From: Zoogloea dura
GTDB lineage: Bacteria; Pseudomonadota; Gammaproteobacteria; Burkholderiales; Rhodocyclaceae
Direction of reading: 5' to 3'
Length of the DNA stretch: 64,000 bases
Assembly (NCBI RefSeq): GCF_012927165.1
Contig: NZ_JABBGA010000004.1
Location: 124,001-188,000, forward strand
A program made the translations under genes and the position numbers. Positions 993 through 24,318 of the stretch are shown piece after piece. Numbering within the stretch: the stretch's first letter is position 1; each line of letters starts with the position of its first letter. Under the pieces are notes generated by a model. That model saw only the letters and a program-made list of their open reading frames with translations, was not told the origin of the DNA and made no database searches.

Positions 993-1258
993 GTCCGGGG
1001 CCCCAACCGGCGGTGTTCGTCGGAACAGTAAAACTGGCCCCCGCTCTTCAAGCCCTCGCTCTCGGGCACATGCAGGCCACAGTGGGCACAGGCCACCATC
1101 TGTTCGATGGCAGGCCCGGCGCGCTCCGGCGTGTCGGCCGGGGCTCCGCCCGAGGCGGGGCGGCCGCCCTGCCCCTCTCCTCCAGCCCCTCGCTGCAGCG
1201 CACGCCGCACGTAGAAGACACCGATCAGGAAAAGGACGAAGAGGAGAAGATTGCGCAC
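989..1258 (-). CDS. small membrane-anchored zinc-ribbon protein (PP0621 family)
   Basis: An 89-residue protein starting at GTG. It opens with one hydrophobic helix (MRNLLLFVLFLIGVFYVRRA), followed by a Gly/Ala/Pro-rich linker and a C-terminal metal-binding module with CAHCGLHVPESEG and YCSDEHRR. The four Cys/His positions look like a TRASH/zinc-ribbon fold. This arrangement matches the PP0621 family, often found next to pilS; no biochemical function is established. Its TGA overlaps the pilS ATG (ATGA), which argues for translational coupling. Longer in-frame starts exist upstream but would run into the aminotransferase gene and lack the conserved start context. Confidence 0.75.
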   Translation of the reverse strand: MRNLLLFVLFLIGVFYVRRALQRGAGGEGQGGRPASGGAPADTPERAGPAIEQMVACAHCGLHVPESEGLKSGGQFYCSDEHRRLGPRT

Positions 1259-1287
1259 GGGAAAGGGCTCCGGAGGGACGGCCGAGT

Positions 1288-2448
1288 TTAGCAGAAGCGG
1301 TGGAGACGCTCGAAGGCCGCCTCCAGGGTCTCTTCCCGCTTGGCGAAGCAGAAGCGGATCACCCGCTCGTCCCGCCCCTCGCCAAAGAAGGCCGACAGGG
1401 GGATGGCCGCCACCCCGACCTCGCGGGTCAGCCAATCCACAAAGGCCGTGTCGGCCAGGTCGGCGATGGCCCCATAGCGGGCGGTCTGGAAGTAGGTGCC
1501 GGCGCAGGGCAGCAGTTCAAAGCGGGTCCCCGCCAGCCCGGCCCGGAAAAAGTCGCGCTTGGCCTGGTAGAAGGCGGCCAGCCCGAGATGACGGGAGGCA
1601 TCCTGCATGTAGTCGGCCAGGGCCAGCTGCACCGGGGTGTTCACGGTGAACACATTGAACTGGTGCACCTTGCGGAACTCGGCCATCAGCTCGCCTGGCG
1701 CCAGCACGTAGCCCACCTTCCAGCCCGTCACGTGGTAGGTCTTGCCGAAGCTGGAGACGATCACGCTGCGTGCCGCCAGCTCGGGGTGCAGGGCCACGCT
1801 CTCGTGGCGCACCCCGTCGAAGGCAATGTGTTCATACACCTCGTCCGACACCACGACGATGCCCGTGCCGCGGGTCAGCGCCGCCAGCTCGGCCATGTCG
1901 GCCGGCCCCCATACCGTGCCGGTGGGGTTGTGGGGCGTGTTGATCATGATCATGCGCGTGCGGGGGCTCACCAGGGCCCGCACCGCCGCCCAGTCGGGGC
2001 GATAGTCGGGCGCCCGCAGGGCCACCCGGCGCACCACGCCGCCCTGCAGCTGGATGGCCGGCACGTAGGAGTCATACACCGGCTCGAAGACGATCACCTC
2101 GTCACCCGCATGCACCAGCGCAGCGATCGCCGTGAACAAGGCCTGGGTGGCCCCCGCGGTCACGGTGATCTCCTGTTCGGGGTCGTAGGCGGCGCCGTAC
2201 AGTGCAGCCACCTTGGCCGCAATCGCTTCGCGCAGCGGCATCACCCCGGCCATCGGTGCATATTGGTTGAGGCCCGCCCGCATCCAGTGGGCTACCCGTT
2301 CAAACAGCGCATCCTCCGCGGTGAAATCCGGAAAGCCCTGGGACAGGTTGATGGCGCCACACTCCTGGGCCAGCCGTGACATGGTGGTGAAGATGGTGGT
2401 GCCGACATCGGGCAGGCGCGACACCAGGGGTGCGGGAAAACGGGGCAT
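1288..2448 (-). CDS. PLP-dependent aminotransferase, methionine aminotransferase (YbdL/KAT) type
   Basis: A 386-residue fold-type I aminotransferase, the same length as E. coli YbdL. Visible landmarks are an N-terminal INLSQGFPDF, the PLP-phosphate region TAGATQALF, NTPHNPTGTVW, SDEVYEH with the cofactor-contacting Asp/Tyr, the Schiff-base Lys in SSFGKTYHVTGWKVGY, and the substrate-binding Arg near VIRFCFAK. Family members transaminate methionine, kynurenine or glutamine with keto acids such as the methionine-salvage product KMTB. It is divergent from mtnA across about 125 bp, which fits a sulfur-salvage role. Two ATGs are possible; the second (2448) is preferred because AGGAG is 9 nt away, while the first (2454) has only 3 nt. 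The long upstream in-frame extension is antisense to mtnA and is rejected. Confidence 0.88.
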   Translation of the reverse strand: MPRFPAPLVSRLPDVGTTIFTTMSRLAQECGAINLSQGFPDFTAEDALFERVAHWMRAGLNQYAPMAGVMPLREAIAAKVAALYGAAYDPEQEITVTAGATQALFTAIAALVHAGDEVIVFEPVYDSYVPAIQLQGGVVRRVALRAPDYRPDWAAVRALVSPRTRMIMINTPHNPTGTVWGPADMAELAALTRGTGIVVVSDEVYEHIAFDGVRHESVALHPELAARSVIVSSFGKTYHVTGWKVGYVLAPGELMAEFRKVHQFNVFTVNTPVQLALADYMQDASRHLGLAAFYQAKRDFFRAGLAGTRFELLPCAGTYFQTARYGAIADLADTAFVDWLTREVGVAAIPLSAFFGEGRDERVIRFCFAKREETLEAAFERLHRFC

Positions 2449-2574
2449 GGGCATACTCTCCTGAACAGGCGCGGAATTCTGGCAGAACCATGAGGCCCGG
2501 GCCAGCCGGGCAATTACCTGCACCGGGCGAAGGCGGCCCGATACAATCGGCGCGAAATCCACCGAGGAAAACCC

Positions 2575-3630
2575 GTGTCCGAACCCTGTCCGACCTTGCG
2601 CCGGGATGGCGATGAAGTCGTCATTCTCGACCAGACCCGCCTCCCCCACGAAGAAAGCTACGTCCGCCTCCACGATCTGGCCAGCGCCGCCGCCGCCATC
2701 CGCGACATGCAGGTGCGCGGCGCGCCCCTGATCGGCGCCACCGCAGCCTATGGCGTGGCCCTCGCCCTGCGCCACACAGCGACCGACGAAGCGCTGCAGC
2801 AGGCCCTCGATGTGCTGCGCGCCACCCGCCCCACCGCCGTCAACCTGCACTGGGCCCTCGACCGCATGCGGGCGGCCCTCCAGCCCCTGCCCCCCTCGTC
2901 GCGCGGTGCCGCGGCGTGGGCCGAGGCCGAGGCCATCCGGCGTGACGATGCGGCAACCAATGCACGCATCGGCAGCCACGGCCTGGCCGCCTTCCGGACC
3001 CTGGCCACACCCAACGGGCGTCCGCTCCAATTCATGACCCACTGCAACGCCGGCTGGCTGGCCACCTGCGGGCATGGCACCGCCCTCGCCCCCATCTACG
3101 CCGCCCACGCCGCCGGCCTGAAGGTTCACGTCTGGGTCAGCGAGACCCGCCCGCGCAACCAGGGCCTGCTCACCGCCTGGGAACTGACCCGCGCCGGCGT
3201 CCCCCATACCCTCATCGCCGACAACGCCGCCGGCTGGCTGATGGCAGCGGGCCGGGTGGATGCGGTCATCGTCGGGGCCGACCGCATCGCCGCCAATGGC
3301 GACACCGCGAACAAGGTGGGCACCTACCTCAAGGCCCTCGCCGCGCGTGCCCACGGGCTGCCCTTCTACGTGGCCGCACCACGCTCCACCATCGACTTCG
3401 CCTGCCCCGACGGCGCCGGCATCCCCATCGAAGAACGCTCCGGCGACGAGTTCCGCCTCATCCACGGGGTCGGCGAAGACGGCCGCGCGCAGCGTACCCG
3501 CATCGCCGGCGAAGGTGCCGCAATATGCAATCCGGCCTTCGACGTCACGCCGGCGGAACTGGTCACTGGCATAATCTGTGAATTCGGCATCCTGCCCCCC
3601 GACGCCCTGGCGTCCCTCCAGAATCACTGA
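2575..3630 (+). CDS. mtnA: S-methyl-5-thioribose-1-phosphate isomerase
   Basis: A 351-residue member of the MtnA/eIF2B-like family. It converts 5-methylthioribose-1-phosphate to 5-methylthioribulose-1-phosphate in the cytosol. Family hallmarks are RGAPLIGATAAYG in the N-terminal part, the catalytic Cys in FMTHCNAGWLAT, and the catalytic Asp in VGADRIAANGDTANKVGTY. The start is GTG with GAGGAAAA just upstream. A TACAAT hexamer at 2542-2547 is a plausible -10, but no good -35 is evident. The next gene, 21 bp downstream, is a class II aldolase, which suggests the isomerised product is cleaved rather than dehydrated by MtnB. Confidence 0.95.
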   Translation: MSEPCPTLRRDGDEVVILDQTRLPHEESYVRLHDLASAAAAIRDMQVRGAPLIGATAAYGVALALRHTATDEALQQALDVLRATRPTAVNLHWALDRMRAALQPLPPSSRGAAAWAEAEAIRRDDAATNARIGSHGLAAFRTLATPNGRPLQFMTHCNAGWLATCGHGTALAPIYAAHAAGLKVHVWVSETRPRNQGLLTAWELTRAGVPHTLIADNAAGWLMAAGRVDAVIVGADRIAANGDTANKVGTYLKALAARAHGLPFYVAAPRSTIDFACPDGAGIPIEERSGDEFRLIHGVGEDGRAQRTRIAGEGAAICNPAFDVTPAELVTGIICEFGILPPDALASLQNH

Positions 3631-3651
3631 AATCCCGAACGGAGGCCTCCG

Positions 3652-4341
3652 ATGAACGAGAACGTGCTTCGTGCCGGCTTGCTGGCCACGGCTCAGGCCA
3701 TGGCCAGCAACGGTCTCAATGCCGGAACGGCCGGCAATGCCAGCGTCCGCAGCAACTCGGGCTTCCTGATCACACCGAGCGGCCGCAGCTACGAAGACTG
3801 TGGCCCCGAGGACATGAGCCTGATGGCCATGGACGGCAGCTGGCAGGGGCCCTTCGCCCCGTCCAGCGAATGGCGGATCCACCGGGACATCCTGGCCGCC
3901 CGCCCCGAAGCCGGCGCCGTGCTGCATGCCCACTCGCCCTTCGCCACGGCCCTGGCCTGCCTGCGCCGCAACATCCCGGCCTTCCATTACATGATCGCCC
4001 GCTTCGGCGGCAGGGACATCCGCTGTGCGCCGTATGCCACCTTCGGCACCCAGGCCCTGTCGGACGGCGCACTGGAAGCCCTCGAGGGGCGCAGTGCCTG
4101 CCTGCTGGCCAACCACGGCATGCTGGTGTTCGGCACCGATCTGCGCCGTACCCTGGCCCTCGCCATCGAGTTCGAGACCCTCTGCGAACAATACTGGCGT
4201 GCCTGCCAACTCGGCACGCCGACCATCCTGTCCACCTCCGAGATGGACGAGGTCATCGAGCGCTTCAAATCCTACGGACGCCCGCAGCCAGCGGCTGCCC
4301 CCGGGGCCTCCGACACCGCAGCACCGACCGGCCAGGACTGA
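3652..4341 (+). CDS. class II (fuculose-1-phosphate-type) aldolase, probable 5-methylthioribulose-1-phosphate aldolase
   Basis: A 229-residue zinc-dependent class II aldolase. It keeps the catalytic and zinc residues at the same numbers as E. coli FucA: Glu73 in SSEWRIH, His92 and His94 in VLHAHS, and His155 in LLANHGMLVFG. The N-terminal phosphate-binding element GLNAGTAGNASVR and LITPSG are also present. FucA, RhaD, AraD and MtnB share this fold, so sequence alone does not give the substrate. The AGTAGN.S...LITP.G pattern is FucA-like rather than typical MtnB. Lying directly behind mtnA, it is a good candidate for the Ald2 enzyme of the DHAP shunt, splitting methylthioribulose-1-phosphate into DHAP and 2-methylthioacetaldehyde. 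An AGGCCTCC-containing leader precedes ATG. Confidence 0.85.
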   Translation: MNENVLRAGLLATAQAMASNGLNAGTAGNASVRSNSGFLITPSGRSYEDCGPEDMSLMAMDGSWQGPFAPSSEWRIHRDILAARPEAGAVLHAHSPFATALACLRRNIPAFHYMIARFGGRDIRCAPYATFGTQALSDGALEALEGRSACLLANHGMLVFGTDLRRTLALAIEFETLCEQYWRACQLGTPTILSTSEMDEVIERFKSYGRPQPAAAPGASDTAAPTGQD

Positions 4342-4350
4342 CCCCGCCCC

Positions 4351-8991
<4,641 letters not shown>

Positions 8992-13662: not shown

Positions 13663-14538
13663 TCACCTGGGCGTTGAAACAGGCTCAAGCACCCGGAGCA
13701 GGCTGGCCGTATCGTCGCGGCCGCCCCCCAGGGCCATCAGGGCATTGAGTTGCTGCCAGGTCTGGGCCACCACCGGCAGGGGCGCGCCAAGCTGGCGGGC
13801 CTCTTCCATCAGGATGGCAAAGTCCTTGTGATGCAGACGCGCCTGGATGCCCGCCACGAAATCCCGCGCAGCCATGCGCCCTCCCATCACATCGAGCACA
13901 CGCGACGCCGCAGAGCCGCCCATCAGGGCCTCCCGCAGCTTGTGCAGGTCAACACCATGCGCACCGGCCAGACGCATCGCCTCGGCGCAGGCCTGGATGG
14001 CATTGACCATGATCATCTGGTTGCACGCCTTGGCCACCTGCCCCGCGCCCGCCGGGCCGATATGCACGATGGTCTTGCCGAGGCAGGCCAGCAGCGGGCG
14101 CACCCGCTCCAGCACCTCGGACGCCCCGCCGGCCATGATGGCCAGGGTGGCGTCACGGGCGCCGATCTCGCCGCCCGACACCGGCGCATCCAGCCAGCCG
14201 ATACCCTTTTCGGCATAGCGGGCTGCCACCCGGCGGGCGGTGCCCGGGGCGATGGTGCTCATGTCCACATGGATGGCGCCCGGCGCAAACCCAGCGAGCA
14301 GGCCGTCCGGCGCGAGGGCCAGTTGCTCCACATCGGCGCTGGCTGTCACCACCGAGATGACCACCTCACAGCAGGCTGCCAGCTCGGCCGGCGTGGCGCA
14401 GGCCCGGGCCCCGGCCTCGATCAGCGGCACCATGCTGTCCGCACGGCGCGCCCAGACCGCCAGCTCGTGGCCGGCCACCAGCAAGTGGCCCGCCATCGGG
14501 CGTCCCATGACGCCCAACCCCACGAAACCGACCTTCAC
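13663..14538 (-). CDS. NAD(P)-dependent beta-hydroxyacid dehydrogenase (GlxR/HIBADH family), copy 2
   Basis: A 291-residue member of the 3-hydroxyisobutyrate/tartronate-semialdehyde reductase family. The Rossmann motif GFVGLGVMGRPMA opens the protein, VDMSTIAPGTAR and the substrate-binding DAPVSGGEIGA lie in the middle, and the catalytic Lys is in GQVAKACNQMIMVN. These enzymes reduce or oxidise C3-C4 beta-hydroxy acids such as 2-hydroxy-3-oxopropionate in glyoxylate use, or glyoxylate/succinic semialdehyde. The exact substrate cannot be fixed from sequence. It directly follows a paralogue in the same orientation with a 1-bp gap, so the pair is co-transcribed and probably arose by tandem duplication. 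Confidence 0.88.
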   Translation of the reverse strand: MKVGFVGLGVMGRPMAGHLLVAGHELAVWARRADSMVPLIEAGARACATPAELAACCEVVISVVTASADVEQLALAPDGLLAGFAPGAIHVDMSTIAPGTARRVAARYAEKGIGWLDAPVSGGEIGARDATLAIMAGGASEVLERVRPLLACLGKTIVHIGPAGAGQVAKACNQMIMVNAIQACAEAMRLAGAHGVDLHKLREALMGGSAASRVLDVMGGRMAARDFVAGIQARLHHKDFAILMEEARQLGAPLPVVAQTWQQLNALMALGGGRDDTASLLRVLEPVSTPR

Positions 14539-14539
14539 T

Positions 14540-15412
14540 TCATTCTCCCGACAGGCTTTCCAGCAGCTTCAGCGCAGCCACCGAATCATCCTCACCCATC
14601 CCGCTGCCCACCATGGCGTTGAACAACTGGGCCGTGGCGGCGCTGCTAGGCAACATCAGGCCCAGGCGATGGGCTTCCTGCATGACGATGTTCATGTCCT
14701 TCTGGTGCATCCAGGCCTTGAAGCCGGGCTTGAAATTGCGGTCCAGCATGCGCTGGCCGTGGTTCTCGAGGATGCGGCTGTAGGCGAAGCCGCCCAGCAG
14801 CGCCTCGCGCACCTTGCCTGCGTCCACCCCGCTCTTGCGGGCAAAGTTGAAGGCTTCCGCCACCGCCAGCACCCCCACCCCGGTGAGGATCTGGTTGCAG
14901 GCCTTGGCCACCTGGCCGGCCCCGGAGGCACCGATCAGGGTCGCGGCCTTGCCCATGCAGGCAAACAGCGGACGCGCCGTTTCGAACGCCGCCCCGTCAC
15001 CGCCGACCATGATGGTCAGGCCACCGTTGATCGCCCCCACCTCGCCGCCGGATACCGGTGCATCGAGCATCACCACGCTCCACTCCGCCAGGCGCGCCGC
15101 GATGGACTGGGCCGCAGAAGGCGCAATGGTGCTCATGTCCACGTAGATGAGGCCCGGTCGCGCGCCCTCGGCCACGCCGCCGGCGCCCAGGGCGACCTGC
15201 TCCACGTCGGCTGCATCGGCCACCATGGAGAACACCACGTCACAGGCCGCAGCCACCTCGGCAGCGCTCGCCGCGCCCTTGGCGCCCGCCTCGAGCAGCG
15301 GCGCCATGGATTCGGCGCGGCGCGCCCACACGGTGAGATCGAAACCACCCTTGAGAAGATTGAGGGCCATGGGGCGCCCCATGATGCCGAGACCGATGAA
15401 ACCGACTTTCAT
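14540..15412 (-). CDS. NAD(P)-dependent beta-hydroxyacid dehydrogenase (GlxR/HIBADH family), copy 1
   Basis: A 290-residue paralogue of the adjacent dehydrogenase. It has the Rossmann motif GFIGLGIMGRPMALNLL, VDMSTIAPSAAQ, the substrate loop DAPVSGGEVGA and the catalytic Lys in GQVAKACNQILTG. The C-terminal helical domain includes FKAWMHQKDMNIVMQEA. GlxR (2-hydroxy-3-oxopropionate reductase) is a reasonable first guess, because no mmsB/mmsA valine-degradation partners or glyoxylate carboligase are nearby to decide. It is first of the two in transcription order and 1 bp from the second. Confidence 0.88.
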   Translation of the reverse strand: MKVGFIGLGIMGRPMALNLLKGGFDLTVWARRAESMAPLLEAGAKGAASAAEVAAACDVVFSMVADAADVEQVALGAGGVAEGARPGLIYVDMSTIAPSAAQSIAARLAEWSVVMLDAPVSGGEVGAINGGLTIMVGGDGAAFETARPLFACMGKAATLIGASGAGQVAKACNQILTGVGVLAVAEAFNFARKSGVDAGKVREALLGGFAYSRILENHGQRMLDRNFKPGFKAWMHQKDMNIVMQEAHRLGLMLPSSAATAQLFNAMVGSGMGEDDSVAALKLLESLSGE

Positions 15413-21472: not shown

Positions 21473-23077
21473 ATGGACAACAGTTACGCTCTCCACCACC
21501 TCATCATCCATTCAGCTGAAAGGCGCCCCGACGCCATTGCCCTCGGTGACGGCAAGGCCGAACTCAGCTACGCCGTGCTCGCCGAACGCTGCCAGGCCTT
21601 TGCCAACGGCCTGCTGGCCCTGGGCGTGGAACGCGGCGACCGCATCGGGATCTATCTCGACAAGCGCTTCGAGACTGTCATCGGATCATTCGGAAGCGCC
21701 GCCGCCGGTGCGGCCTTCGTACCGATCAACCCGATTCTCAAGGCCCAGCAGGTCGCCTACATCCTGCAGGACTGCAATGTGCGTGTGCTGGTCACATCGC
21801 CGGAGCGCCTGCCCCAGATGAGCGAGGCACTGGCCCATTGCCCGGACCTCCGGCATGTGGTGCTGACCGGCAACCCCGCCGAGCTGCCTGCCATGGAAGG
21901 CCTTGGCGTACACCGCTGGGACGATTTCATGTCGGCGCCACCCAGGCAGGCTCATCGCATCACCGAGTCGGACATGCTGGCCATCCTCTACACCTCCGGC
22001 AGTACCGGCCGGCCCAAAGGCGTGGTGCTGTCACATCGCAACATGGTGACCGGCGCCAAGAGCGTCGCCAGCTATCTCGGCAACAATCCCGACGATACCT
22101 TGCTGGCGGCCCTGCCCCTGTCCTTCGATGCAGGCTTCTCCCAGCTGACCACTGCGTTCTTCAGCGGTGCCCGGGTCGTCCTGCTGAATTACCTTTTCCC
22201 TCAGGATGTCCTCAAGGCCGTCGTCCGCGAGCGGGTCACCGGCCTGACCGCGGTGCCCCCCCTCTACATCCAGCTGGCCCAGCTGAAATGGCCCGAAACA
22301 GTGACGGAGCATCTCCGCTACTTCGCCAACACAGGTGGCCGCATGCCCCTGGACACCCTCACCACCCTGCGTGCCCACCTGCCCCGCACCCAGCCTTTCC
22401 TGATGTACGGCCTGACCGAGGCTTTCCGCGCCACCTACCTGCCTCCCGGAGAAGTCGACCGGCGCCCCGACTCCATCGGCAAGGCCATTCCCAACGCCGA
22501 GGTGCTGGTGCTGCGGGAGGACGGCAGCGAATGCAGCCCTAACGAGCCTGGTGAACTCGTGCAGCGGGGGGCTCATGTCGCGATGGGCTACTGGAACGAC
22601 CCGCTCAAGACCGAGGAGCGCTTCAAGCCCCTGCCCAACGGTGCCCCTGCCCGCCACAGCGGCCTGGTGCTGCCGGAGATTGCGGTTTTCTCCGGAGACA
22701 CGGTTCGACGTGACGAGGACGGCTACCTGTACTTCATCGGGCGCCGGGACGAGATGATGAAGACCTCCGGATACCGGGTCAGCCCCACCGAGGTCGAGGA
22801 AGTCCTCTACGGCACACAACTGGTGGGAGAGTGCGCAGCCTTCGGGGTCCCCCATCCAACGCTGGGACAAGCCATCTGCGTGATTGCCAGCGGACGTGAC
22901 GGCGCTCCCCTGGACACCCAGGCCCTGCTTGTCGAGTGCAAGCAGCGCATGCCGGCCTACATGGTTCCGGCGGTCATCGAGGCAAGAGACGGCCCCCTTC
23001 CCCGCAATCCCAATGGCAAGATCGACCGCAAGGCGCTTTCCACTGAATTCGAAAATCGCAGCAAGGTACAAGCATGA
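21473..23077 (+). CDS. acyl-CoA/acyl-ACP ligase (AMP-forming), exosortase A system-associated
   Basis: A 534-residue adenylate-forming enzyme. Core motifs are all present: A3 LYTSGSTGRPKGVVLSH, A5 YGLTEAFRATYLPPGE, A7 SGDTVRRDEDGYLYFIGRRD, A8 KTSGYRVSPTEVEEV and the A10 Lys in NPNGKIDRKAL. It would activate a carboxylate with ATP and pass it to CoA or to the phosphopantetheine arm of the neighbouring ACP. The pairing with a PLP decarboxylase and an ACP is that of the exosortase-A-associated ligase family; the natural substrate is not known. Its TGA overlaps the decarboxylase ATG (ATGA), so the two are translationally coupled. Confidence 0.88.
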   Translation: MDNSYALHHLIIHSAERRPDAIALGDGKAELSYAVLAERCQAFANGLLALGVERGDRIGIYLDKRFETVIGSFGSAAAGAAFVPINPILKAQQVAYILQDCNVRVLVTSPERLPQMSEALAHCPDLRHVVLTGNPAELPAMEGLGVHRWDDFMSAPPRQAHRITESDMLAILYTSGSTGRPKGVVLSHRNMVTGAKSVASYLGNNPDDTLLAALPLSFDAGFSQLTTAFFSGARVVLLNYLFPQDVLKAVVRERVTGLTAVPPLYIQLAQLKWPETVTEHLRYFANTGGRMPLDTLTTLRAHLPRTQPFLMYGLTEAFRATYLPPGEVDRRPDSIGKAIPNAEVLVLREDGSECSPNEPGELVQRGAHVAMGYWNDPLKTEERFKPLPNGAPARHSGLVLPEIAVFSGDTVRRDEDGYLYFIGRRDEMMKTSGYRVSPTEVEEVLYGTQLVGECAAFGVPHPTLGQAICVIASGRDGAPLDTQALLVECKQRMPAYMVPAVIEARDGPLPRNPNGKIDRKALSTEFENRSKVQA

Positions 23078-24318
23078 CTGAAAGCAGCCGGGAAAAGCCG
23101 GTCCACGCCCCGATGGACCAATTCACGAGCGAGGCAGGCGAACTGCTGGTGGGCGGCATCCCCCTCGGACGTCTGCTTGCCCGGGTTGGCCAGACGCCTT
23201 TCTATGCCTACGACCGTGAGCTCCTGACCCGCCGCAGCAAGGAACTCCGCGACGCCCTCCCCAAGGGCATCAAGATTCACTACGCCATGAAGGCCAATCC
23301 CATGCCTGCCGTGGTCGGTCACATGGCACGCCTGGTGGACGGCATCGACGTCGCCTCCGCCCAGGAACTCCAGGTCGCCCTGGACTGCGGTGCCGATCCA
23401 CGCGAGATCAGCTTTGCAGGCCCCGGCAAGCGTCACGAAGAGCTTCGACAAGCGGTTGCGGCGGGCATCTTGATCAATATCGAGTCCTTCCGCGAAGTGA
23501 ATGAACTGGGCGCCATCCGCCAGGCCAGTGGATGGCCGGTTCGCGTCGCAGTCCGGGTCAATCCCGACTTCGAGCTGAAGAGTTCGGGTATGAAGATGGG
23601 CGGTGGCCCCAAGCAGTTTGGAGTGGATGCGGAGCAGGTCCCCGAACTGCTTGCCGCCATCGGCCAGGCCGGGCTGGCCTTCGAGGGTTTCCACCTGTTC
23701 GCCGGCTCGCAGAACCTGCGCCCGGAAGCCATCGTGGAAGCCCAGCGCAAGAGCTTTGAACTGGCCCTGCGCCTCGCCGAGCATGCCCCCTCCCCGGTTC
23801 GCTTCCTCAATCTCGGCGGTGGCTTTGGCATTCCCTATTTTCCGGGCGAACAACGCATTGATCTGTCGGCCATCGCGGACAATCTGGCAGCCATCCAGCG
23901 GGAGGCCGCCGAGAAGATGCCGGACGCCGAGATCGTCATCGAACTTGGGCGCTACCTGGTCGGCGAAGCAGGCATCTACGTGTCCCGGATCATCGACCGC
24001 AAGGTCTCCCGCGGGCACACCTACCTGGTGACGGATGGCGGTCTTCACCACCACCTGTCGGCTTCCGGCAACTTTGGCCAGGTCATCCGCAAGAACTATC
24101 CGGTCAGCATCGGCAACAGGATGAACGACGCAAACGCAGGCCCTGTCTCCGTCGTCGGCCCCTTGTGCACGCCCCTGGATATTCTGGCCGACCGAATGAA
24201 CCTGCCTGACGCACAGCCGGGCGATCTGGTGGTGGTTTACCAGTCGGGTGCCTACGGTGCGACAGCCAGCCCCCGGGGCTTTCTCAGCCACCCGGACCTG
24301 GTCGAAGTGCTGGTCTGA
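23074..24318 (+). CDS. PLP-dependent decarboxylase, exosortase A system-associated
   Basis: A 414-residue fold-type III decarboxylase related to LysA and ornithine decarboxylase. The Schiff-base Lys is in IHYAMKANPMPAVV, the Gly-rich phosphate loop is NLGGGFGIPYFPGE, a conserved Cys is in VVGPLCTPLDILAD and the cofactor-contacting Tyr is in YQSGAYGATASPRGF. Such enzymes decarboxylate a D- or L-amino acid such as diaminopimelate or ornithine. In exosortase A loci this family accompanies an AMP-ligase and an ACP, and its substrate is undetermined. It is not dapF/lysA-linked here. A strong bidirectional terminator follows. Confidence 0.88.
   Translation: MTESSREKPVHAPMDQFTSEAGELLVGGIPLGRLLARVGQTPFYAYDRELLTRRSKELRDALPKGIKIHYAMKANPMPAVVGHMARLVDGIDVASAQELQVALDCGADPREISFAGPGKRHEELRQAVAAGILINIESFREVNELGAIRQASGWPVRVAVRVNPDFELKSSGMKMGGGPKQFGVDAEQVPELLAAIGQAGLAFEGFHLFAGSQNLRPEAIVEAQRKSFELALRLAEHAPSPVRFLNLGGGFGIPYFPGEQRIDLSAIADNLAAIQREAAEKMPDAEIVIELGRYLVGEAGIYVSRIIDRKVSRGHTYLVTDGGLHHHLSASGNFGQVIRKNYPVSIGNRMNDANAGPVSVVGPLCTPLDILADRMNLPDAQPGDLVVVYQSGAYGATASPRGFLSHPDLVEVLV

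What the first reader, a model, noticed from the sequence alone, without database searches (positions are those of the whole stretch)
2575..4341. mtnA followed by a FucA-like aldolase: candidate DHAP shunt for methylthioadenosine
The isomerase gene is directly followed by a class II aldolase that keeps Glu73, His92, His94 and His155 at FucA positions. In known DHAP-shunt organisms MtnA plus such an aldolase (Ald2) yields DHAP and methylthioacetaldehyde, instead of the MtnB dehydration route. No mtnB, mtnC or mtnD is adjacent. The pair would recycle the 5'-deoxy-5'-methylthioadenosine carbon to tpiA-level glycolysis.
Basis: partly seen in the sequence, partly recalled or inferred. Interest (0 to 1): 0.72.

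Follow-up and report, generated by a model that had tools for sequence, protein, structure and literature searches.

The report
Deaminase-fed DHAP shunt, mtnA–aldolase operon
A Zoogloea-like bacterium appears to dispose of a by-product of S-adenosylmethionine use by cutting it into a glycolysis sugar and a small aldehyde, a known kind of pathway that here seems to be fed by a different first step (removal of the amino group) than in the organisms where it was worked out.

Summary
The gene pair is real: mtnA (2575-3630) and, 21 bases on, a FucA-type class II aldolase (3652-4341) with Glu73, His92, His94 and His155. mtnA lies in the fetched DNA around the aldolase in 74 of 80 public relatives. 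The genome (rated 100% complete) has no MtnB, acireductone dioxygenase, RuBisCO-like protein or mtnK by profile search, so aldol cleavage is the only known fate I found for 5-methylthioribulose-1-phosphate; MtnC was not searched. On a tree the aldolase sits in a supported all-mtnA-linked clade, apart from E. coli FucA and MtnB. The DHAP-shunt reading is supported. New is the entry: the genome's only phosphorylase of that family is the methylthioinosine type, and a methylthioadenosine-deaminase-type gene is present. Among 38 genomes of the class with this aldolase, the deaminase is in 32 of 33 with mtnA and 0 of 5 without; the exception, G121, has an mtnP-apt-mtnA-aldolase cluster with an MTA-type phosphorylase. 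One genome (G213) has both kinds. I propose a deamination-first DHAP shunt: MTA/5'-deoxyadenosine → (methylthio)inosine → pentose-1-phosphate → ketose → DHAP + aldehyde.

The parts
2575..3630 (+). mtnA, 5-methylthioribose-1-phosphate (and probably 5-deoxyribose-1-phosphate) isomerase; GTG start, GAGG at 2564-2567
   Evidence: TIGR00512 411.5 bits over cut-off 279; 255 bits to PDB 1t9k and 235 to 2yrf, with the Cys of CNAG and the Asp of GADRIA aligned (their catalytic role is recalled)
3641..3645 (+). GGAGG ribosome-binding site of the aldolase gene, inside the 21-base gap after mtnA
   Evidence: read directly
3652..4341 (+). [quoted passage not shown]
   Evidence: Pfam Aldolase_II 181.6 bits; 43% identity to E. 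coli FucA; Glu73, His92, His94, His155 kept; mtnA-linked clade
1288..2454 (-). methionine aminotransferase (MtnE/YbdL type), divergent from mtnA; conserved neighbour in part of the relatives, role in this pathway unknown
   Evidence: PRK09082 638.5 bits over cut-off 420; found in 18 of the 70 relative loci that have mtnA upstream of the aldolase, divergent from mtnA in 17

Best explanation
The pair is the lower half of a DHAP shunt, and in this genome the shunt is fed by deamination. Proposed route: MTA (and 5'-deoxyadenosine) is deaminated by the PRK09045-type deaminase (contig C56:162393-163706) to 5'-methylthioinosine (5'-deoxyinosine); the MTIP-type phosphorylase (C34:44943-45674, about 81 kb from mtnA) gives hypoxanthine and the pentose-1-phosphate; MtnA isomerises it to the ribulose-1-phosphate; the aldolase, through a metal-bound DHAP enediolate and Glu73, cleaves it to DHAP and 2-(methylthio)acetaldehyde (acetaldehyde). 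DHAP enters glycolysis. Shown: the genes, their families, active-site residues, linkage, and the absence by profile search of MtnB, MtnD, RLP and MtnK. Inferred: every substrate and the direction of flux. Unknown: the fate of the methylthio-aldehyde, and whether MTA or 5'-deoxyadenosine is the main load. My confidence is about 0.85 for the aldolase cleaving the MtnA product and about 0.7 for the whole route including deamination.
For: Anatomy and active site. mtnA in the fetched stretch in 74 of 80 named relatives; gap under 300 bases in 64. Over 274 genomes of the class, 33 of 38 with the aldolase have mtnA against 136 of 236 without (p 0.0005); among mtnA genomes the aldolase is less common with MtnB (5 of 51) than without (28 of 118), p 0.037. 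No MtnB, ARD, RLP or MtnK in the genome. Tree: the window aldolase is in a 13-row clade, all mtnA-linked (SH-aLRT 99), apart from FucA, sugar-gene-linked aldolases and MtnB. Phosphorylase: the only PNP_UDP_1 gene; PRK09136 MTIP model 394 bits over 223, MTAP model 264.9 below 274.85; nearest solved chain 3ozb. Motif N-x-[AG]-A-G in all 29 that could be read of 30 phosphorylases fetched (of 40 places listed); the 12 cluster-linked ones all have Asp there, D-[YF]-D-C-W in the 6 readable so far. Deaminase: PRK09045 664.8 bits over 540; nearest solved chain 4f0r, deposited as an MTA/SAH deaminase. It is in 32 of 33 aldolase+mtnA genomes and 0 of 5 aldolase genomes without mtnA (p 1.2e-5; 29 of 30 and 0 of 3 among genomes at least 90% complete, p 0.0007). 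It lies divergently beside mtnA in 14 of the 30 genomes whose coordinates I could compare. The one exception, G121, has phosphorylase-apt-mtnA-aldolase with the phosphorylase over the MTAP cut-off (311.9 against 274.85) and under the MTIP one (221.1 against 223), and apt over its cut-off.
Against: No enzyme activity was measured. A methionine aminotransferase, the last step of the classical pathway, lies next door and has no place in the scheme. MtnC was not searched. The aldolase passes none of the equivalog models listed (best PRK08087, 193.7 against 264). Class II aldolases are promiscuous, and relatives at 51-53% identity sit beside sugar genes. In the class sample mtnA and aldolase are adjacent in only 9 of 31 comparable genomes. 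Five of 38 aldolase genomes lack mtnA and six have MtnB; over all genomes aldolase and MtnB are not negatively associated (p 0.66). G213 has the deaminase, an MTIP-like gene and, about 0.8 kb upstream of mtnA, a second phosphorylase with Asp at the site, so the two entries are not strictly exclusive. The deaminase could have a broader role (SAH, other adenosines). Genomes are related, so the p values overstate independence. MTIP-type genes are common in the class anyway (193 of 274 at E 1e-50). Deaminase and mtnA are neighbours in 14 genomes, so one missing contig would remove both. The 80 relatives were picked by similarity to an alignment that held mtnA-linked members. The named Rhodocyclales relatives were not tested for MTIP or deaminase.
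Confidence: 0.7

Rival explanations
1. DHAP shunt as already described: the phosphorylase acts directly on MTA and 5'-deoxyadenosine (releasing adenine), and the deaminase serves another purpose.
For: TIGR01694 MTAP scores 264.9 bits, only 10 below its cut-off; aldolases of the same broad family are cluster-linked to phosphorylases with the MTAP-type Asp in G121 and 11 named relatives, Myxococcota and Alphaproteobacteria among them, and G213 has both kinds.
Against: MTIP model 394 bits; N-x-A-A-G base-site motif as in 3ozb; deaminase present in 32 of 33 aldolase+mtnA genomes, absent in the one whose only phosphorylase match is MTAP-type and linked.
Confidence: 0.15
2. The operon mainly disposes of 5'-deoxyadenosine from radical SAM enzymes; MTA is a side substrate.
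For: B. thuringiensis DrdK/DrdI/DrdA do this, and kinase and isomerase form clades apart from methionine salvage (PMC6079011, passages read); E. coli MtnK prefers 5-deoxyribose ten-fold (PMC10986504, passage read).
Against: I found no other MTA route in the genome, so MTA would have to be handled too. Not exclusive with the best explanation: the two share all the enzymes, and the confidences overlap.
Confidence: 0.35
3. The aldolase is a sugar-phosphate aldolase (fuculose-, rhamnulose- or ribulose-1-phosphate) that only happens to lie beside mtnA.
For: 43% identity to E. coli FucA; relatives at 51-54% identity are next to FGGY sugar kinases or rhamnose genes on plasmids; in the class sample 22 of 31 comparable genomes have it away from mtnA.
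Against: mtnA around it in 74 of 80 relatives, and no match to two FGGY kinases or rhaI in those 80 loci; separate clades; the loci of the class where it stands away from mtnA show no obvious sugar operon, except one sugar-kinase-like neighbour in L017 (read by eye).
Confidence: 0.1
4. A classical methionine salvage route with a non-standard MtnB: the class II protein dehydrates 5-methylthioribulose-1-phosphate, and the neighbouring aminotransferase finishes the route.
For: MtnB belongs to the same superfamily; methionine aminotransferase is divergent from mtnA in 17 of the 18 relative loci that hold it.
Against: No ARD in the genome, and MtnB and ARD go together in the class (52 of 55); the MtnB branch is long and separate; FucA-type Glu73 and metal site kept.
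Confidence: 0.04

Closest known systems
DHAP shunt of Rhodospirillum rubrum / Rhodopseudomonas palustris (MtnP-MtnA-Ald2)
   Same: Same lower half: MtnA then a class II aldolase giving DHAP and 2-(methylthio)acetaldehyde.
   Different: The described MtnP variant starts from MTA itself (PMC10986504, introduction read). Here the phosphorylase is of MTIP type, unlinked, with a deaminase. R. rubrum Ald2 could not be compared.
DHAP shunt of E. coli (Pfs-MtnK-MtnA-Ald2)
   Same: mtnA directly followed by the aldolase gene (EC958).
   Different: No mtnK here and no second PNP_UDP_1 gene that could be Pfs; the one present is of MTIP type. E. coli Ald2 is a close relative of FucA; the window's aldolase is not.
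5-deoxyribose salvage DrdK-DrdI-DrdA of Bacillus thuringiensis
   Same: Isomerase plus FucA-like aldolase, aldol cleavage to DHAP, catalytic Glu (PMC6079011, passages read).
   Different: Kinase-fed; solved DrdA 6btd scores 143.5 bits against 165.8 for FucA.
Pseudomonas aeruginosa methylthioinosine route (MTA deaminase + MTI phosphorylase)
   Same: The route is described in PMC6302742 (passage read). The phosphorylase's nearest solved chain is 3ozb, and 4gbd is third among the deaminase's matches (that these two are the P. aeruginosa enzymes is recalled). The deaminase gene lies between gyrA on one side and ubiG and a phosphoglycolate-phosphatase-like gene on the other; a like order in Pseudomonas is recalled.
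   Different: In P. aeruginosa the sugar goes on through the classical pathway with MtnB/MtnD (recalled); here these are missing.
Methanocaldococcus jannaschii promiscuous salvage (5'-deoxyadenosine deaminase, MTI phosphorylase, MtnA homologue)
   Same: Deaminase, inosine-type phosphorylase and MtnA homologue (PMC6302742, passages read).
   Different: Archaeal. In that review the aldolase step is the authors' proposal; PMC6079011 mentions a proposed route on to 6-deoxy-5-ketofructose-1-phosphate.

Membership tests
MtnA (5-methylthioribose-1-phosphate isomerase) | TIGR00512 over its curated cut-off | tested here: met
   411.5 bits against 279
MtnA (5-methylthioribose-1-phosphate isomerase) | catalytic Cys and Asp (role recalled) | tested here: met
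   aligned with 2yrf and 1t9k
FucA-type class II aldolase | Aldolase_II domain; Glu73, His92, His94, His155 | tested here: met
   181.6 bits; residues
L-fuculose-1-phosphate aldolase (FucA proper) | TIGR01086 / PRK08087 over cut-off | tested here: not met
   172.4 against 400.25; 193.7 against 264
DHAP shunt | MtnA with a class II aldolase | tested here: met
DHAP shunt | a source of the pentose-1-phosphate (MtnP, or nucleosidase plus MtnK) | tested here: inconclusive
   no MtnK, one PNP_UDP_1 gene only, of MTIP type and below the MTAP cut-off; a deaminase is present
DHAP shunt | aldolase groups with a characterised Ald2 | tested here: inconclusive
   E. coli Ald2 groups with FucA, not with the window; R. 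rubrum Ald2 and B. thuringiensis DrdA not in the tree
DHAP shunt | cleavage of 5-methylthioribulose-1-phosphate to DHAP | not testable with these tools
   needs an assay
Classical methionine salvage (MtnB-MtnC-MtnD-MtnE) | MtnB and ARD present | tested here: not met
   no ARD; no MtnB over cut-off
Classical methionine salvage (MtnB-MtnC-MtnD-MtnE) | MtnC present | not tested
   no search made
Classical methionine salvage (MtnB-MtnC-MtnD-MtnE) | methionine aminotransferase | tested here: met
   1288-2454, PRK09082 638.5 bits over 420
Methylthioinosine route | MTIP equivalog over cut-off with Asn in place of the adenine-site Asp (role recalled) | tested here: met
   394.2 against 223; N-Y-A-A-G
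Methylthioinosine route | MTA deaminase | tested here: inconclusive
   PRK09045 664 bits against 540 and nearest solved chain 4f0r, an MTA/SAH deaminase by title, but the NCBIfam name is only 'TRZ/ATZ family hydrolase' and no substrate was tested

The most novel reading that the evidence does not exclude
A deamination-first DHAP shunt (MTA deaminase, MTI phosphorylase, MtnA, class II aldolase) is a usual way in which Beta- and Gammaproteobacteria without mtnB/mtnD dispose of MTA and 5'-deoxyadenosine, releasing hypoxanthine instead of adenine. The last step has been filled at least three separate times: by the aldolase of this window, by a FucA offshoot in E. coli, and by a short class II aldolase, often beside thiamine genes and hemL, that does not occur together with the first in the mtnA genomes compared.
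Probability: 0.35. Interest if true: 0.62.

Novelty: new variant of a known kind. Interest (0 to 1): 0.45.

Why it matters
MTA and 5'-deoxyadenosine inhibit SAM-using enzymes, so cells need an outlet for them. Many mtnA-bearing genomes of this class have no MtnB over its cut-off: 118 of 169. A deaminase-fed shunt would explain mtnA in some of them (28 of the 118 have this aldolase), makes a testable prediction (hypoxanthine, not adenine, is released; MTI and 5'-deoxyinosine are intermediates), and would predict methylthioethanol or methanethiol release by activated-sludge bacteria such as Zoogloea, provided that the named relatives have the same entry enzymes, which was not tested.

Tried and rejected
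The other two class II aldolases of the genome (L002 beside a TRAP-type binding protein, L003 in an aromatic-degradation setting, both read by eye) were considered as MtnB and rejected: neither is among the MtnB-profile matches. A SAM riboswitch or other RNA near the operon: the only Rfam match over threshold in the window is a tRNA. Promoter scan of 1200-4700: none found; two terminator-like sites against a shuffled mean of 1.6. The solved DrdA sequence could not be displayed because FucA variants fill the top rows, so DrdA is not in the tree. R. rubrum was not among the 80 loci kept. Aldolase and MtnB over all 274 genomes are not associated (6 of 38 against 49 of 236, p 0.66); only within mtnA genomes is there a depletion (p 0.037). 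Three weak aldolase matches (G111, G228, G272; 77-83 bits) were left out of the 38. The short aldolase was first counted as 31 genomes; after fetching all 31, one (G248, 25% identity) was dropped and 30 kept, and a weak MtnB-profile hit in G011 proved unrelated. Paper searches for an MTI-fed DHAP shunt listed no paper that describes one in bacteria as far as I read; the library lacks most subscription papers, and the listed papers were not all opened.
Full report
What is there. The window is part of a 5.83 Mb genome rated 100% complete. The nearest aldolase relatives (78-83% identity) come from four Zoogloea records and one unplaced MAG, so the organism is Zoogloea-like. mtnA runs from 2575 to 3630 and the aldolase from 3652 to 4341, with 21 bases between them. 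mtnA passes its equivalog model (411.5 bits, cut-off 279); the aldolase is clearly FucA-like but passes none of the equivalog models listed. Downstream, nine bases after the aldolase stop, a large hybrid sensor kinase begins (4351-8991).

Is the pairing conserved? mtnA lies in the fetched stretch in 74 of 80. It is upstream on the same strand within 2.5 kb in 70, and the gap is under 300 bases in 64; three have mtnA downstream of the aldolase. By their titles many are Rhodocyclales, with Methylophilales, Alphaproteobacteria and Myxococcota. In an even sample of the class the link is looser: adjacent in 9 of the 31 aldolase genomes for which both coordinates were listed.

Is it FucA, MtnB or a sugar aldolase? 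In a tree of 83 class II aldolase rows (quick method, SH-aLRT only, 40 of 79 inner branches under 80) the window falls in a 13-row clade (99), every row of which is linked to mtnA. Three aldolases beside sugar kinases or rhamnose genes form their own clade (99), and MtnB is far off. E. coli FucA, one unnamed relative and the E. coli DHAP-shunt Ald2 form a 100% clade. So the E. coli Ald2 seems to have come from FucA, and 'grouping with FucA' is not a clean refutation of an Ald2 function. R. rubrum Ald2 and B. thuringiensis DrdA are not in the tree.

What other routes does the genome have? No acireductone dioxygenase, no RuBisCO or RuBisCO-like protein, no 5-methylthioribose kinase, and three class II aldolases, of which only the window's meets the MtnB profile at all, far below its cut-off. 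MtnC was not searched. The only PNP_UDP_1 gene is on the same contig about 81 kb upstream of mtnA.

How is the pathway fed? That gene scores 394.2 bits with the methylthioinosine phosphorylase model (cut-off 223) and 264.9 with the MTA phosphorylase model (cut-off 274.85). Its nearest solved chain is 3ozb (256 bits; next 159) (that 3ozb is the P. aeruginosa methylthioinosine phosphorylase is recalled, its title says MTA phosphorylase). In the base site, the two MTA phosphorylases aligned in the same output read T-D-Y-D, while 3ozb reads N-P-A-A-G and the window genome N-Y-A-A-G. That this site separates adenine from hypoxanthine binding is recalled. The genome also has a deaminase of the PRK09045 family (664.8 bits, cut-off 540) whose best solved match is 4f0r, deposited as an MTA/SAH deaminase (477 bits). 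It lies between gyrA and ubiG plus a phosphoglycolate-phosphatase-like gene.

Is that a rule? I took the 38 genomes with an aldolase match over 140 bits among 274 of the class (three weaker matches left out). A phosphorylase match was found in 37 of 38, at 40 places. Of the 30 fetched, 29 could be read at the motif and all have N-x-[AG]-A-G. Twelve phosphorylases linked to mtnA and/or the aldolase, from G121 and 11 named relatives, all have Asp there; 6 were readable to D-[YF]-D-C-W. The deaminase is in 32 of 38: in 32 of 33 with mtnA and in none of 5 without (p 1.2e-5; 29 of 30 and 0 of 3 among genomes at least 90% complete, p 0.0007). In 14 of the 30 genomes where coordinates could be compared, deaminase and mtnA are divergent neighbours. 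The single mtnA genome without the deaminase, G121, has a phosphorylase over the MTAP cut-off (311.9 against 274.85; MTIP 221.1 against 223), then apt (258.1 against 170), then mtnA and the aldolase. Adenine phosphoribosyltransferase fits a route that releases adenine; a deaminase fits one that releases hypoxanthine. One genome is mixed: G213 has the deaminase, an MTIP-like gene and, about 0.8 kb upstream of mtnA, a second phosphorylase with Asp at the site.

Against this. The genomes are related, so the p values are too small. MTIP-type genes are common in the class whether or not the aldolase is there: 193 of 274 at E 1e-50, 186 over the cut-off. mtnA was counted at E 1e-40 (169 genomes; 165 have a match over the cut-off). 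Six of 38 aldolase genomes have MtnB; the aldolase is depleted with MtnB only within mtnA genomes (5 of 51 against 28 of 118, p 0.037), not over all genomes (p 0.66). The methionine aminotransferase next door fits no step of the scheme; it is found in 18 of the 70 relative loci with mtnA upstream, divergent in 17 (some loci are cut short). I have no account of it.

What is known. The DHAP shunt is described with two entries, nucleosidase plus kinase or MtnP (PMC10986504, introduction read in full; passages). PMC12632272 (outline and passages) gives the E. coli operon at tRNA-leuX. PMC6079011 (passages) reports kinase-or-phosphorylase, isomerase and aldolase clusters in six phyla and shows 5-deoxyribose salvage in B. 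thuringiensis. A review, PMC6302742 (passages and one section), describes the P. aeruginosa MTI route and the R. rubrum shunt separately, and for M. jannaschii a deaminase, an MTI phosphorylase and an MtnA homologue with a proposed aldolase step. I found no description of a deaminase-fed shunt in bacteria with the searches.

A second lead outside the window. The MtnB profile also weakly hit a short class II aldolase of about 185 residues. I picked 31 genomes from the list by match coverage, then fetched all 31 loci: 30 are one family (47% identity or more to the L210 copy; 29 carry N-D-S-H-S-G), and G248 is not. In the five aligned, Asp stands in place of Glu73. Of the 30 genomes, 28 have mtnA (p 0.00009); none of those 28 has the window-type aldolase, against 33 of the other 141 mtnA genomes (p 0.0016). 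thiE and hemL lie nearby in 9 of the 12 longer loci, and thiD or thiE shows in 7 of the other 18, of which only about 3 kb was fetched. ThiC is a radical SAM enzyme that makes 5'-deoxyadenosine (recalled). This may be an alternative aldolase for the same product, but shared ancestry and a set picked from weak hits make it only a lead.

Verdict. It is a known kind of pathway with a new entry, predicted from gene content, not shown by assay.

Noticed in passing
Candidate alternative aldolase for the MtnA product.
   Followed up: partly
window 1288-2454: Methionine aminotransferase divergent from mtnA, kept in part of the relatives although this genome lacks MtnB and ARD; no role found.
   Followed up: partly
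window 4351-8991: Hybrid sensor histidine kinase starting nine bases after the aldolase stop; a match at 44-66% identity follows the aldolase in five Zoogloea-like relatives, so it may be co-transcribed.
   Followed up: partly
L235:1209-3611 (G213:C39): A genome with deaminase and MTIP-like gene that also has a second, MTAP-like phosphorylase about 0.8 kb upstream of mtnA.
   Followed up: partly
window 21473-24318: Exosortase A-associated acyl-CoA ligase (TIGR03098, 794 bits) and pyridoxal-dependent decarboxylase (TIGR03099, 632 bits), both over cut-off.
   Followed up: no
window 13663-15412: Two tandem 2-hydroxy-3-oxopropionate reductase-like genes, both below the model cut-offs.
   Followed up: no
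L077:12879-15935: E. coli EC958 ald2 scores 273 bits with E. coli FucA and forms a 100% clade with it, so the E. coli DHAP-shunt aldolase appears to be a FucA offshoot unlike the one in the window.
   Followed up: partly
L071-L074 (plasmids): Relatives of the window aldolase sit beside rhamnose or FGGY-kinase genes in Aminobacter, Skermanella and Chelatococcus, and beside mtnK-mtnA and sugar-transporter genes in Caballeronia.
   Followed up: no
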